64,000 bases of DNA from Phellopilus nigrolimitatus (lineage: Eukaryota; Basidiomycota; Agaricomycetes; Hymenochaetales; Hymenochaetaceae). Shown here piece by piece: positions 21,493-59,447 of the stretch (the stretch's first letter is position 1; every line of letters starts with the position of its first letter). The stretch is taken from contig JAJOHG010000001.1 in assembly GCA_021029095.1 (NCBI GenBank), forward strand, positions 1,240,001-1,304,000, given 5' to 3'. The position numbers and the translations under genes were made by a program. Under the pieces are notes generated by a model, which made no database searches, had not been told where the DNA came from, and saw nothing but the letters and a program-made list of their open reading frames with translations.

Positions 21493-22297
21493 CTTAGAAG
21501 CGGGCACGAGGTCAAGTACTGAAGCGGCGAGCAACGGTTGATTGGGAAATCGCTTGGCTAATGGATCAGGTACGTACGGTTCCGGAAGAATTCTAAGTTT
21601 GTTGTGCGTTGCGCTCTCGGCTGTCTGACTGGAAGCGGGGAGATCGATGGAACCGAGTAGGACGTGTAGACGACGACGAGGGCGACGGCGAGGGCGATGG
21701 CGAGGGCGATGTCGAGCGTCGAGCGGACAAGCCTAACGGCGGAAGGTAGCGGAACAGTACAAGAGGTGCCTTTGGTTGTCGCCCAATCAACTCCACTTCA
21801 ACTTCAGCATCGGCACTTTCCGAAACCTTGTTCTACCACAGGATTAATGTGGCGTAAACCTGCTATGCGCATACACTTTCCCTCCTTCGCAGTACATTAT
21901 TCATATGATGCATAGCAAAACCGGATCTTTCACCTTATGTTTACGTCTACTGAGATAGTAATAAAAAAAAATCGTTTCAGTGATTAAGCTGAAGGCAAAA
22001 TCAAAGCAGATCCCCTTAGAACGATGTGAAACAAGCTGTGAAATGAGTAGCTGATATGCTCCGTAGGGAATTCGAGAGAGTCTTGCGCTTGCAGAATTTC
22101 GGTCGCGTTTACTGAAATGGCATTCGGCACTCGGCACTCGACACTCGGCACTCGACACTCGGCACTCGGGAGGCTTCGTACAATACACGTGACACACGAA
22201 GTCTCACGACTCCAGTTTATGATGCACGTTCGCGCGCGCAGCATCGATTTGCACGTCGCTGCTGGTCGCGACTCGACTTGCTTCACTTGCACGGACA
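21493..22297. other. divergent intergenic between PAL1 and the desaturase
   Basis: This stretch holds two simple repeats and no supported gene. At 21665-21720 there is a purine-rich tract built from gacgag/gcgagg/gcgatg hexamers. At 22121-22169 there is an array of cactcgg/cactcga units. The remaining sequence is AT-rich near 21890-21990. Confidence 0.5.
22121..22169. repeat. short tandem repeat of cactcgg/cactcga units
   Basis: Seven-base units ggcactc and gacactc alternate about seven times in 49 bases (cattcggcactcggcactcg, then acactcggcactcg repeated). It lies about 130 bp upstream of the desaturase start and so may vary in copy number within the promoter or 5' leader. Confidence 0.85.
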
Positions 22298-50917: not shown

Positions 50918-51486
50918 ATGGATTCTACGTCGTCCATCGCAGCGCAGCTTAAGACAGATGATGGCGTCTGCGTTCTCACATACGACCCTCTCGACACAGC
51001 GAGCATCATCAGTTCAGTGAGCAGCGACGCAGCAGGCGCTCAAGCTGTATTTATTGGCACGACCCGCAACTCATTCAAAGGTGCTCCATATTCTCCAGTC
51101 CATGGCTACCGCAGACACTACATCACTGACCACATCGGAACACAGGCAAAGTCGTCACGCGCCTTGAGTATCAGGCATATAGCAAGCTCGCGATAAAGAC
51201 CATGGCCGACATCCTGCGTGCCGTGCGGTCAGTCGTTTCACGTTCAGACCACGACCCGGCCGCCTCTCCTTTAATCCTCTGTGCCCTTTACCATAGGCTG
51301 GGCACAGTTCCGGTCGGCGAGCCGTCCATTGTCATCGCTGTCTCGTCTCCGCATCGGAAGGAGGCCTTCCGTGCGTGCGAGTACATCCTCGAGGAGGTCA
51401 AACTTAAGGCGCAGATATGGAAGAGGGAGTACTACGAAGGTGATCGCGAGGAAGATGCTAAATGGAAGGCGAATACCGCAAGTTGA
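50918..51486 (+). CDS. MOCS2B: molybdopterin synthase catalytic subunit (MoaE/MOCS2B)
   Basis: Large subunit of molybdopterin synthase, which inserts sulfur into precursor Z during molybdenum cofactor synthesis, with the MoaD partner. Two exons (50918-51080 and 51146-51486) give 167 residues. Motifs are VCVLTYDPLDTASIISSVSS, AGAQAVFIGTTRNSFKGKVV and TRLEYQAYSKLAIKTMADIL. Then come CALYHRLGTVPVGEPSIVIA, VSSPHRKEAFRACEYILEEV and KLKAQIWKREYYEGD, the last holding the conserved catalytic-site Lys in the KxxxxKRE segment. The apparent intron at 51230-51295 is not used: the frame is open and encodes ALYHRLG, which the family requires. The gene starts 105 bp from the divergent pseudouridine salvage gene. 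The MoaD partner is not in the window. Confidence 0.94.
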
Positions 51487-51902: not shown

Positions 51903-52722
51903 TTAAACGCTCGCCGTCTGGACAGGCAAAGTGTCGACATCCTCGGGCTCAGCAGGCGCATCACGTTTCGCGTTCCCATACGGTTCGATCACACCGTTAG
52001 GTGACTTCGTCGGGATCTGTGCCGGCATAGTGTTGATATCCTGGCGCTTTTCGAGTATCTCGTCGCGCTTGTACGGTTCAATCACGCCATTAGGAGATTT
52101 CGTCGGGATTTGTGCCGGCATAGTGTTGATATCTTGGCGCTTCTCGAGAATCTCATCGCGCTTGTACGGTTCGATCACGCCGTTAGGTGACTTCGTTGGG
52201 ATTTGTGCAGGCATAGTGTTAATATCCTGGCGCTTTTCGAGTATCTCGTCGCGCTTATACGGTTCGATTACGCCGTTAGGTGACTTTGTCGGGATCTGTG
52301 CCGGCATAGTGTTGATATCCTGACGCTTCTCGAGTATCTCGTCCCGCTTATACGGCTCAATCACGCCGTTAGGCGATTTCGTCGGGATCTGGGCCGGCAT
52401 AGTGTTGATGTCCTGGCGCTTCTCGAGTATCTCGTCCCGCTTATACGGCTCAATCACGCCATTAGGAGATTTCGTCGGGATCTGTGCTGGCATAGTGTTG
52501 ATGTCCTGACGTTTCACGTAAGCAGGAATGGGCTCAAAAGGCCCAGGCGAGCGCGCTTCAAGAGCATCCTAAGGGTAAATAGAACAGAGGATATTAGAAT
52601 TTTTATTCAACCGTGTAAGGAGGACTGCTTACGACCGCAGGCGCGGGACTAGGGACAGGGACGGCAAGGGCCTGCGTGATCATGAAGAGGGCAACAACGG
52701 CGAGGGAAGTGATGCGAATCAT
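51903..52722 (-). CDS. secreted kexin-processed repeat-peptide precursor, six identical 22-residue peptides
   Basis: Secretory precursor of 251 residues from two exons (52722-52633 and 52568-51903). Residues 1-20 (MIRITSLAVVALFMITQALA) are a signal peptide. Residues 31-50 are a leader ending AYVKR. Then come five 31-residue units, each a 22-residue peptide starting QDINTMPAQ and ending VIEPY, followed by KR, the spacer DEILE, and KR. A sixth peptide ends in GNAKR and a 19-residue acidic tail. Unit starts in DNA are 52508, 52415, 52322, 52229, 52136 and 52043, exactly 93 bases apart. The Lys-Arg pairs are Kex2-type sites, so processing would release six copies of the 22-mer with N-terminal Gln (able to form pyroglutamate) and five DEILE pentapeptides. 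There is no Cys, no CaaX box and no dikaritin-like core. The role is unknown; signalling or a surface-peptide role is possible. The ATG at 52881 is less likely, as the signal peptide begins at 52722. Confidence 0.88.
51978..52508 (-). repeat. 93-bp tandem coding repeat, 5 full units plus a partial sixth
   Basis: The units are in frame and of identical length. They differ by scattered third-position changes such as CAG/CAA for Gln, CGC/CGT for Arg and GAC/GAT for Asp, while the encoded 22-residue peptide is the same in all six. It is a true protein-level repeat, not a recent pure DNA slippage product. Confidence 0.95.
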
Positions 52723-53085
52723 GGCGATATTGAATGCTTCAAAGCTGGGGTGAAGTCGTGTCTGAAGAAGTTGGACTGAAGAGTGGAAAGGACAGCGAAT
52801 GGAAAGGTCGCCCTGCGGCCTGTGTCGAAGAACGAAAGATTGAAGAGGGGAAAAATGAAGAGCACGGCTCAACAGCAACAACGACTGGAAGAAATAGAGA
52901 GAGAGAGGAAGGAAACGAGGTCTTTATGGGAACGAGAACTCGAGGCTGCCAGCTGCGGTGACCATAGTGACCATAGTGACCATTGGATGGCAACCACCAA
53001 TCACAGTCTATTCCAAGCGCGCGTAACTTTTCTAATTGGGCCTAGCTTTCTACTCCCGCCCGCCGTCCCCGAGCCCACAATTATT
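52723..53085. other. divergent promoter of the repeat-peptide gene and ESF1
   Basis: 363 bases shared by two divergent genes. Near 52958-52984 a nine-base unit (gaccatagt) repeats three times, ending accattgg. An A/G-rich block with gagaga runs lies at 52885-52915. The frame MLLLSRALHF from 52881 extends the peptide gene upstream, but it would bury the signal peptide and is judged untranslated. Confidence 0.5.
52958..52984. repeat. nine-base tandem repeat gaccatagt x3
   Basis: Three direct copies of tgaccatag in a 27-base stretch within the promoter between the peptide gene and ESF1. It may be a cluster of factor sites or plain slippage. Confidence 0.75.
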
Positions 53086-55483
53086 ATGAGCGACCCCCGC
53101 TTCGCCCGTCTCCGCACCGACCCCCGCTTCCGCAAGCCAAAGAAAAATCAGCAAAAGGTCGTCGTCGACGATCGCTTCAAATCTATCTTCGAAGACGACA
53201 AAAAAGGTGCTAAGAAAAAATCAAAAAGTACGCACATCCTCTTGTTACATGCCGCATCGCATTCGTTCTGACGCGGCAACGCTAATTGATATCTCCCCTT
53301 TGAACGGACAGGCGGTCATGTAGACAAGTACGGGAGACACGTCTCTGACAGTCATGAGAAGGACAATCTCCGGCGCTTCTACCGCCTTGAGGGCGAGGAA
53401 GAGGAAAAATCTGAGACTCCTCCGAAAGTCCTCGACTATGCGCGTGGAGAAGTGCTCCTCGAGTCCTCCGACGAAGAAGATGAAACCGGACCTGGAGACC
53501 CGGCGAGTGATGATGATGGGGAGGAAGTAGTGCTGGGTCGTCACGCCTCAAAACCCATCCCCGTTCCCGGCGAAGAAGAGCACTTAGAAATTGATCTCAA
53601 CGAAGACGACGATGCTTACGCGGACCTCGATGCTCAGGCTGCTGCTTATGCTGAGGAACACGCGGAAGACGAGACTGAAGGAAGTGGCTCCAAGACCAAC
53701 AGACTGGCGGTAGTCAATCTCGACTGGGACCATGTCCGCGCTAGCCACCTCTACAGGATTTTCTCGTCATTGGTCTCTTCCACTGCACCCTCTTTCTCTG
53801 TTGCTACCGGAGTTGCATCCTCTGCGAAGGGCAAAAAGAAAAGTGTACCCTCTGGTGCGAAAGTAATCCGTGGAAAAGTTCTCAGTGTGCGCGTCTATCC
53901 TTCTGAATTCGGCAAAGAGAGAATGAGAAGGGAGGAAGCTGAGGGCCCGCCGAAAGAGATCTTTAAGAAGAGCAGGCGTGATGACGATGACAACCTGGAT
54001 GGTCTGATTCAGGAGGACGAAGGCGACGAGTATGACGAGAACGCCTTGAGAAAATATCAGTTGGAAAGACTCCGGTAAGCAAATCGAAATTTTGGTACCT
54101 GCACGTCTTTTTATTTTGTTCATTTTTCTTAGCTATTATTACGCCGTAGTTACATGCGATACCGTCGACGCCGCGACGCATCTACTCTCTGAGCTGGACG
54201 GAACGGAACTCGAACGTTCGGCCAATGTTTTCGATCTAAGTTTCGTTCCGGACGACATGTCATTTGACGATGAGTTCAGGTGAGGGCTCTGATAGTGTTT
54301 CATCTCATTTACTAATCTCGTTTTAGGGAGGAAGCAACACCTGCAACGGAATCCGCTGGTACAGCCTACAAAGGCCTTGACTTCTCGACGGACGCGCTGC
54401 GGCATTCCAAAGTGACGCTTAAATGGGATGAGGATGATACCGAACGGAACAAGATCACGCGTAAAGCTCTTTCGCGCAAGGAGATAGAGGAAGGCGACTA
54501 CCGGGCTTACATCGCTTCCTCGGGCTCGGAGGACGAAGACGAAGGGAAAGGAGAAGAGGCTGGCAAGGGTGATCGAGAAAAGCTTAGGAAACTACTCCTC
54601 GGTGGCGGAGGGGATGGCATTCCAGAGGGTTGGGGAGGCGACCCCTTCAATAACGGCGAGGATGGCGAGGACGGTGACATGGAGATTACATTTATGCCAG
54701 GTCTGAGTGAAGCCAACACGAAAGATGGTGATGAGACGACTTTGGAGGCGTACAAGCGGAAACAGAAAGAGAAGCGACAACTGCGGAAGCAGGAGCGGAA
54801 GGAGCAGCCAGAGGGGAAGAAGAAAACGGAGGGGAAGAAGGCAAAGGGCCTTAAGGACGATTTCTTCGATGAAGACAGCGAAAGCGACGATGGCGATGCT
54901 GTGGACGATCCTAAGAAGGCGGCGGAAGAGCATATAGACAGGAGCGAGAGTCCCGTTGAAGATCGCCCCGCTACAGAGGCTGAGCTGGAGCTCTTGGTCG
55001 CACCTGATGGTGCCTCTAAAGGACAGAAGCACTTCGACATGAAGTCGATCCTGAAGGCGGAAAAGGCGAAGGGCAAGCAAAGAGTGCAAAGGGGAAAGAA
55101 AAAGGGCAAGGATGCGGGAGAGGAGGAAACGCAAGAGGATTTCCAGATCGACGTCAAAGATGAGCGTTTTAAGGCTTTGCACGAAGAGCACATCTTCGCA
55201 ATTGATCCGAGCAACCCTCAGTGAGTTTTATTTCCTATTTCATGCACGTATGACGCTCATCAAATCCTTACTATCTAGTTTCAAGAAAACAAAGAGTATG
55301 GCAGCATTATTGGAAGAACGAGGGAAGAGACAGCATGGTAGGGGGGCGCGAACCGGCGAGAGAACATCGGCGAAAGGAGATGAAACTTCGAAGACGCAGA
55401 GTCTGCAAAGTTTAGTAGAGAGCGTCAAGCGAAAAAGCAACCATTTAGGTGGCAGAGGTGTAGACAAGCGCCGTAAAGTATGA
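53086..55483 (+). CDS. ESF1: pre-rRNA processing factor ESF1
   Basis: Nucleolar protein of the ESF1/ABTAP family, known to be required for 18S rRNA maturation within the U3 processome. Starts at ATG 53086 with the conserved DPRFARLRTDPRFRKPKK and VVVDDRFKSIFED. The next exon supplies GHVDKYGRHVSDSHEKDNLR and RFYRLEGEEEE. The central RNA-binding-like fold includes TNRLAVVNLDWDHVRASHLY, KVLSVRVYPSEFGKERMRRE, ALRKYQLERLRYYYAVVTCD and DTVDAATHLLSELDGTELE, then VFDLSFVPDDMSFDDEFREE. After GLDFSTDALRHSKVTLKWDE, the C-terminal half is highly acidic and basic by turns. The terminal NUC153-type motif is DERFKALHEEHIFAIDPSNP, followed by the basic end VDKRRKV. All ESF1 hallmarks are present, at about 700 residues. 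Confidence 0.95.
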
Positions 55484-58934: not shown

Positions 58935-59447
58935 CAGTCAAACCTCTCGTTAAGCATTCTTGTAGTTAAGCATTACCTGTCATTAAGCATAGAAATTTGG
59001 GTCCACCGACTTGGTAGATACGAAAATAAGGGTCCATTAAGCATAATTGTAGTTAGGCATTAAGCATAGAGGCTTTTTGAATAAATAATTGGGAATATGC
59101 TTAATGAGAGGTACCAAATACGCTCAAACATTTGGCGGAATTGTAATTTTTTTGTGTTTGGCAAGCTCATTGGCCGAGTTACAGTCACAATTATTCAAGC
59201 CACAGCCATAAAGTAATTCTCATTTAAATTTTAGGCTAATAATGAGCATGTTCCCAAGTTTGAGGTTGCCAGAGTCTGAGCCCGAGCTACTTTTCTCACT
59301 TATCCGGCAGTTATGTGATTTTGGGCAAGAGCAGAAACTAAAGTATTTCATTATGTAATATATGCAAAGCCGGCGATAAGCATAACCCTTCGTTAAGCAT
59401 GACCTGAGGTGTCCACCGAGGGCTATGCTTAACGAGAGGTTTGACTG
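58935..59447. mobile_element. non-autonomous TA-flanked DNA transposon (MITE, pogo/Fot1-like termini)
   Basis: 513-bp element with perfect 23-base terminal inverted repeats that start CAGTCAAACCTCTCGTTAAG, flanked by TA on both sides (58933-58934 and 59448-59449), as expected for Tc1/mariner-pogo target-site duplication. The inside carries eight copies of TTAAGCAT (six direct, two inverted), plus GTCCACCGA near both ends at 59001 and 59411, which look like subterminal binding sites. There is no transposase frame, so it is non-autonomous. It lies between the dehydrogenase and the Myb-repeat gene, about 116 bp from the former's ATG. Confidence 0.88.

What the first reader, a model, noticed from the sequence alone, without database searches (positions are those of the whole stretch)
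51903..52722. Kexin-processed repeat-peptide precursor with six identical copies, no known family
The protein has a signal peptide, a leader ending in Lys-Arg, and five perfect 31-residue units of [22-mer]-KR-DEILE-KR followed by a sixth 22-mer. Cleavage would release a 22-residue peptide six times and a DEILE pentapeptide five times. The peptide has no Cys, no prenylation signal and no resemblance to known basidiomycete pheromones or dikaritins. Seen in the sequence: the repeats and cleavage pairs. Established: Kex2 cuts after Lys-Arg. Inferred: secretion and a signalling or surface role.
Basis: partly seen in the sequence, partly recalled or inferred. Interest (0 to 1): 0.92.

Follow-up and report, generated by a model that had tools for sequence, protein, structure and literature searches.

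The report
Member of known mushroom peptide-precursor family
This fungal gene encodes a secreted protein that carries six identical copies of a 22-residue peptide to be cut out, and it belongs to a peptide family already described in mushrooms whose job is still unknown.

Summary
On the minus strand (52722-51903), after one predicted 64-nt intron, lies a 251-aa precursor with a signal-like N-terminus and six letter-identical 22-mers (QDINTMPAQIPTKSPNGVIEPY), five followed by KR-DEILE-KR. All DNA differences between copies are synonymous although median dS is about 1, so this is a selected coding sequence, not a chance or freshly duplicated ORF. "No known family" is wrong: the 22-mer matches at 12 of 18 positions a peptide detected in Coprinopsis cinerea (pyro-QIPAELPTKSINGNIEPY from KEP 497993; Vogt et al. 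2022), reported to have at least 13 agaricomycete homologues. I found 51 related proteins, the named ones in Polyporales, Agaricales, Russulales and, distantly, Cantharellales. It probably also belongs to Umemura's type G-1/#7, the KEP type found in most genera (49). Most likely mechanism: Kex2/Kex1 release of linear, pyroglutamate-capped peptides; neither a dikaritin nor an alpha-pheromone. By the KR rule five copies come out as the 22-mer; the sixth keeps GNA at its end. The published knockout of the relative had no visible phenotype, so function is open. New here: a fully homogenised six-copy member, and a conserved leader block that predicts a further peptide (SPGPFEPIPAY).

The parts
52663..52722 (-). 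Signal-peptide-like segment, MIRITSLAVVALFMITQALA (residues 1-20)
   Evidence: translation; hydropathy maximum 2.8 over 10 residues; ALA before the assumed cut (recalled -3,-1 rule)
52569..52632 (-). Predicted 64-nt intron, GTAAGC...CCCTTAG
   Evidence: many other GT-AG pairs also keep the frame; no transcript seen
51903..52568 (-). Exon 2 with stop codon (exon 1 is 52633-52722)
52518..52550 (-). Leader block SPGPFEPIPAY (residues 37-47) between a single Arg and V-KR; candidate further peptide
   Evidence: Leader pattern in 18 of 52 precursors including the window, 0.6% of shuffles
52443..52508 (-). Core 1, 22-mer
52350..52415 (-). Core 2, 22-mer
52257..52322 (-). Core 3, 22-mer
52164..52229 (-). 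Core 4, 22-mer
52071..52136 (-). Core 5, 22-mer
51978..52043 (-). Core 6, 22-mer, followed by GNAKR (51963-51977) in place of KRDEILEKR
52044..52442 (-). Stretch holding the five KR-DEILE-KR spacers (52416-52442, 52323-52349, 52230-52256, 52137-52163, 52044-52070) between the cores
   Evidence: coordinates worked out from the residue numbers
51906..51962 (-). C-terminal tail DAPAEPEDVDTLPVQTASV; begins with dipeptides of the XA/XP kind

Best explanation
A single-copy gene of the agaricomycete KEP family whose characterised member is Coprinopsis cinerea KEP 497993. The precursor enters the secretory pathway; Kex2 cuts after the KR pairs; Kex1 trims the basic residues; the N-terminal Gln closes to pyroglutamate. 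This gives up to five linear pyro-QDINTMPAQIPTKSPNGVIEPY peptides per precursor and a sixth ending ...EPYGNA. DEILE stretches are acidic spacers. Shown here: gene anatomy, family membership of the core, protein-level selection on the copies, and Kex2-type genes in the same genome. Shown by others for the relative: release and pyroglutamate capping. Inferred: secretion and processing in this fungus. For function I commit, at about 0.4, to a short-range peptide signal made in particular tissues (the relative's core peptide was found mainly in young caps), acting between hyphae or towards the biotic surroundings.
For: 18 of 18 core changes synonymous, mean dS 1.02 with dN 0. 12 of 18 identities with the C. 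cinerea peptide; 20,000 shuffles reach at most 9; a unit HMM built from relatives, holding neither, scores window 38.8 and C. cinerea 40.4 bits, shuffles at most 13.5 and 12.2. 51 relatives with the same plan (read). Gln is the first residue after the dibasic site in 76 of the 102 relatives' units that have such a site within 8 residues. Two loci with subtilase plus P domain, Peptidase_S10 pieces. Published detection, processing in yeast and loss in the knockout of the relative.
Against: No transcript or mass spectrum for this fungus. The whole C. cinerea precursor was not among my hits, so the link rests on its peptide. A second peptide of that precursor, pyro-QVPVDEPA, scores only 2.4 bits with the unit model. 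The knockout of the relative grew and fruited normally and synthetic peptides did not inhibit five bacterial strains, so no function is shown. Kex1 was not singled out among 58 S10 pieces, and the M28 search is not specific for a glutaminyl cyclase.
Confidence: 0.85

Rival explanations
1. A structural or surface peptide of the hyphal wall, working like Ustilago Rep1, released in bulk and assembling outside the cell.
For: Repeat precursor with many copies; published surveys propose wall roles for some KEPs (PMC6339444). In C. cinerea the core peptide was found in tissue and not in the supernatant.
Against: The 22-mer is hydrophilic (GRAVY -0.63), with four prolines and no Cys; Rep1 peptides form amyloid-like fibrils (stated in PMC9769878). 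No Rep1 sequence was compared here.
Confidence: 0.2
2. A defence or competition peptide against other organisms.
For: The authors of the C. cinerea study favour a role towards the biotic environment because the knockouts looked normal in pure culture.
Against: No antibacterial activity of synthetic peptides on five strains. The core is conserved across orders and here kept identical, unlike what I would expect of an arms race (inference).
Confidence: 0.2
3. A dikaritin-type RiPP, cyclised at Tyr by UstYa oxidases.
For: Same kind of precursor; a conserved Tyr or Phe ends the core; the genome has UstYa matches (17 at E <= 0.001).
Against: None of the 17 lies on contig C1. Umemura type #7, probably this family, has 0 of 64 genes with DUF3328 within 15 genes. 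The relative's peptide was found linear.
Confidence: 0.03
4. An alpha-type mating pheromone precursor.
For: Same overall plan. The tail after the last KR starts DA-PA-EP, fitting the XA/XP rule for Ste13; two DPPIV_N loci in the genome.
Against: No XA/XP dipeptides stand between KR and any of the six cores: each starts QD. Basidiomycete mating pheromones are a-type (PMC6339444). The knockout of the relative fruited normally. The Ste2 search found nothing but no control rang, so it says nothing.
Confidence: 0.03
5. A chance or non-coding tandem repeat that happens to be open.
For: A 130-aa ORF is also open on the other strand.
Against: All changes synonymous in this frame, signal-like exon, conserved leader and relatives in other orders.
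Confidence: 0.01

Closest known systems
Coprinopsis cinerea KEP 497993 (Vogt et al. 2022, PMC9769878)
   Same: Core QIPAELPTKSINGNIEPY matches at 12 of 18 positions; N-terminal Gln; ends in EPY; basic residue follows; Kex2-processed precursor
   Different: Window core has four more N-terminal residues (QDINTM- for QI-); six identical copies; constant DEILE spacer. Full C. cinerea precursor not compared
Umemura 2020 KEP type G-1/P-2 (#7) (PMC7329392)
   Same: Single copy, no UstYa/DUF3328 nearby, spurious TubC_N match, agaricomycete range including Coprinopsis, Pleurotus, Panaeolus, Hypsizygus and Termitomyces
   Different: Its repeat profile is a figure I could not read. Lentinula, a genus with a homologue in Vogt and among my hits, is not in its genus list. 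Membership inferred, about 0.8
Somion occarium P0001 (closest protein found)
   Same: SP, leader REPAPLEVIPAYLKR, cores [AQ]D[VL]N..PAEI.TKAP.GQIEPY; DEV spacer after KR
   Different: Four core units that differ among themselves (at most two identical) and a variant last unit ending IELI
Ustilago maydis Rep1
   Same: Basidiomycete Kex2-processed repeat precursor
   Different: Forms amyloid-like fibrils (PMC9769878); sequences not compared here
Dikaritins (ustiloxin, phomopsin)
   Same: Signal peptide, repeats between KR sites
   Different: Need UstYa genes nearby; none on this contig

Membership tests
KEX2-processed repeat proteins (KEPs, Le Marquer 2019) | Signal peptide and no membrane helix | tested here: inconclusive
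   Hydropathy fits (10-residue maximum 2.8 in the first 20; after that the 19-residue maximum is 0.11); SignalP and TMHMM not available
KEX2-processed repeat proteins (KEPs, Le Marquer 2019) | At least three similar fragments between KR/RR/KK sites, filling 15% or more of the protein | tested here: met
   Six identical 22-mers, 132 of 251 residues
KEP 497993 family (Vogt 2022) | Homologous core peptide | tested here: met
   12 of 18 identities, shuffle maximum 9 of 20,000; HMM 38.8 and 40.4 bits against at most 13.5 and 12.2
KEP 497993 family (Vogt 2022) | Full-length homology to the C. cinerea precursor | not testable with these tools
   Its full sequence is not in the text and it was not among the 51 hits
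KEP 497993 family (Vogt 2022) | Pyroglutamyl linear peptide present in tissue | not testable with these tools
   Needs mass spectrometry of this fungus; the N-terminal Gln is there
Umemura type G-1/P-2 (#7) | Matches the type's repeat profile | not testable with these tools
   Profile is a figure; supplements closed
Umemura type G-1/P-2 (#7) | No DUF3328 gene nearby, about one copy per strain | tested here: met
   No UstYa match on C1; one locus only
Dikaritins | UstYa (DUF3328) gene in the neighbourhood | tested here: not met
   17 matches in the genome, none on contig C1
Alpha-type pheromone precursor | Ste13 XA/XP dipeptides between the Kex2 site and each core | tested here: not met
   Each core starts QD directly after KR

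The most novel reading that the evidence does not exclude
The family is a peptide-hormone system of the mushroom-forming fungi as a whole, kept in single copy from Polyporales and Russulales to Agaricales and perhaps Cantharellales. Its precursor releases two conserved peptides: the repeated ..PxE...K.PNG.I.PY core, and a leader peptide of the type [SE]PxP[LF]xxIPAY that ends in a similar I-P-x-Y and lies outside the published alignment, which starts at the first Kex2 site.
Probability: 0.2. Interest if true: 0.8.

Novelty: new member of a known kind. Interest (0 to 1): 0.36.

Why it matters
It joins a gene for which no identical protein was found in the collection searched to a peptide family that has been seen by mass spectrometry and is probably the KEP type found in most fungal genera, yet has no known function. 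Six copies that stay identical in protein while their synonymous sites have largely diverged show that selection holds the residues of the 22-mer; that argues for a specific function more strongly than the published knockout, without phenotype in pure culture, argues against one. The conserved leader block gives a concrete further peptide to look for in existing mushroom peptidomics.

Tried and rejected
Chance or junk tandem repeat: rejected, all of at least 18 core changes are synonymous. Recent duplication as the cause of identity: rejected, dS 0.24-3.6, mean 1.02.

Pfam TubC_N (34.1 bits, cut-off 26): rejected as an artefact; no single stretch passes on its own. The other five Pfam matches lie below their cut-offs. 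PDB: one match at E 1.7, meaningless.

Dikaritin and alpha-pheromone readings: rejected. The Ste2 search had no ringing control and says nothing. The M28 search for a glutaminyl cyclase is not specific. The promoter/terminator scan uses bacterial consensus and does not apply.

A paralogue: P0013 as query gave this locus (six matches, E 1.3e-4 to 0.015) and two weak ones elsewhere, E 0.66 and 4.8, not followed.

Literature: the first KEP searches listed Le Marquer, Umemura and Vogt. Six core and leader words: 0 papers. C. cinerea core words: one paper, Vogt 2022. KEP papers from 2020 on: 14 listed, of which I opened two (Vogt, Umemura). Pyroglutamate/basidiomycete peptides: 9 listed, nothing further opened. 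All of this covers open PMC papers only.

Full report
What is there. The gene lies on the minus strand between a convergent MoaE-domain gene (pieces 50918-51193 and 51202-51483, +) and a divergent ESF1 gene (start near 53086, read; Pfam RRM_ESF1 and NUC153). Exon 1 (52722-52633) encodes MIRITSLAVVALFMITQALA plus ten leader residues; a 64-nt intron with GTAAGC donor and CCCTTAG acceptor follows; exon 2 (52568-51903) encodes the rest. The 251-aa product is: signal-like segment; leader ending SPGPFEPIPAYVKR; five units of QDINTMPAQIPTKSPNGVIEPY-KR-DEILE-KR; a sixth 22-mer; GNAKR; a 19-residue tail. Many other GT-AG pairs also keep the repeat frame open; I chose this one for its donor, acceptor and intact signal segment. 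It is a prediction. By the KR rule cores 1-5 leave as 22-mers and core 6 as a 25-mer ending EPYGNA, a correction to the finding.

Is it more than chance. Among the six cores 16 of 66 nucleotide columns vary, needing at least 18 changes; over the five full units 20 of 93 columns vary. All are third-position and synonymous. With a neutral synonymous fraction of 0.24, 18 of 18 has probability about 7e-12 if changes are independent. Pairwise dS over 15 pairs is 0.24 to 3.6, mean 1.02, with no non-synonymous difference; units are short, so single values are rough. The copies are not freshly made; they are kept at the protein level, perhaps with exchange between copies.

Relatives. The whole precursor found six proteins at E <= 10: Somion occarium (2e-48), Macrolepiota fuliginosa, Hermanssonia centrifuga, two metagenome proteins and, at E 8e-3, Amanita thiersii. 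Only the 7,994 candidates sharing most words were scored. A profile of six (window shortened, two relatives trimmed) found 39 at E <= 1, three of them found before, with Hymenopellis, Russula, Lactarius, Termitomyces, Lentinula, Agrocybe, Amanita and Rhizoctonia solani among the named ones. A search from the Termitomyces protein gave 18, nine of them new. In all, 51 distinct relatives were read. Orders looked up: Somion and Hermanssonia are Polyporales, Hymenopellis Agaricales, Russula Russulales, Rhizoctonia Cantharellales. Under a fixed pattern, 126 units came from 41 of the first 42 relatives (the Rhizoctonia protein has none and is at best a distant member). Weighted per protein: E at 96%, P at 95%, final Y 87% or F 13%, G 100% (columns that the pattern itself fixes or narrows), and N 55%, the late P 81%, K 78%. 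Gln is the first residue after the dibasic site in 76 of 102 units with such a site within 8 residues; 24 of the 126 have none.

Link to the published family. Vogt et al. 2022 (PMC9769878; [quoted passage not shown] All derive from KEP 497993, are lost in its knockout, and the paper reports at least 13 homologues in other species. The window 22-mer and this 18-mer share 12 of 18 positions; 20,000 shuffles reach at most 9. A unit HMM from the relatives, holding neither, gives 38.8 and 40.4 bits; of 5,000 shuffles each, 4,421 and 4,257 got a score at all, with maxima 13.5 and 12.2. The short peptide QVPVDEPA scores only 2.4. The relatives were found starting from the window, so the window's score is partly built in; the C. 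cinerea score is independent. 'No known family' therefore falls.

Umemura 2020 (PMC7329392; read: passages and the section on diversity) gives type G-1/P-2 (#7) as the one found in most genera among 838 KEP types: 64 KEPs, 62 strains, 49 genera, 0 of 64 with DUF3328 within 15 genes. Its genera include Coprinopsis, Pleurotus, Panaeolus and Hypsizygus, genera of Vogt's homologues, and Termitomyces, one of my hits; Lentinula, named by Vogt and among my hits, is not in its list. Its Pfam list includes TubC_N, the same spurious match that our protein gives. I put membership at about 0.8 (0.85 before I checked the genus list again).

Processing machinery in the same genome (56.4 Mb, 635 contigs, matched exon by exon): P-domain matches at two loci, both with subtilase domain, where C. 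cinerea has three Kex2; Peptidase_S10 58 matches, not resolved into Kex1 and others; DPPIV_N at two loci; Peptidase_M28 19 matches, not specific. UstYa: 17 matches at E <= 0.001, none on contig C1. The KEP locus is single by one DNA match, by the window unit and by P0013 apart from two weak matches not followed.

What is new here. First, homogeneity: six of six cores identical; in the 51 relatives the largest set of identical cores is four (P0008 of seven, P0014 of five, P0022 of four; same pattern). Some relatives are fragments, so this is a comparison, not a rule. Second, the spacer: KR-DEILE-KR is constant here, while relatives have none (P0006, P0007, P0012) or different, often acidic ones (P0001, P0016, P0018, P0019) and some that are not acidic (P0008). 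I read it as a spacer. Third, a leader block. The pattern searched was R, 1-2 residues, P or A, up to two more, L/I/F, 2-4 residues, I or V, two residues, Y. It occurs in 18 of 52 precursors including the window (13 of the 38 with a hydrophobic N-terminal segment), against 0.6% of 10,400 shuffles; 34 of 52 lack it, some with a looser form by eye. Of the 18, ten by eye have the full [IV]P.Y-x-KR. The published family alignment starts at the first Kex2 site (legend of Fig. 3c), and the text I read does not discuss a leader peptide of this family. The block lies between a single Arg and KR, and Vogt et al. infer cleavage after single Arg in KEPs, so SPGPFEPIPAY, perhaps with a further V, is a testable prediction.

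Function. Shown by others for the relative: linear, pyroglutamyl, tissue-dependent; knockout normal in growth and fruiting; synthetic KEP peptides without effect on five bacterial strains. The sequence adds strong constraint. My ranking: short-range signal 0.4, structural or surface 0.2, defence or competition 0.2, the rest unknown or vestigial. The window is from an agaricomycete by its relatives; the closest hit, Somion, shares the [QA]D[IVL]N extension of the core, but the order of the window's fungus was not tested.

Noticed in passing
51931-52323 (+): A 130-aa ORF is open opposite the repeats, a shadow of the repetitive coding strand.
   Followed up: no
52722-51903, Pfam TubC_N: The precursor passes Pfam's curated cut-off for TubC_N (34.1 against 26 bits) by summed repeats, so automatic annotation would misname members of this family; Umemura's type #7 carries the same label.
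   Followed up: partly
P0001, P0008, P0037, P0039: Several relatives end in a variant last unit of the type IPS[EQ]..[TSV]RS.[DN]G.[IV]EL[YI], without a dibasic site after it; the window lacks it.
   Followed up: no
G000 contigs C401/C169, C15/C168, C223/C436: Pairs of contigs carry near-identical matches, as if both nuclear haplotypes were partly assembled; the KEP locus appears once.
   Followed up: no
52885-52930 (-): A pyrimidine-rich tract lies upstream of the start codon, in the roughly 360-bp stretch shared with the divergent ESF1 gene; recalled as common in strongly expressed fungal genes.
   Followed up: no
22119-22169 and 58942-58990: Two other short tandem arrays, period 7 (7.3 copies) and period 16-17 (2.5-2.9 copies).
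   Followed up: no
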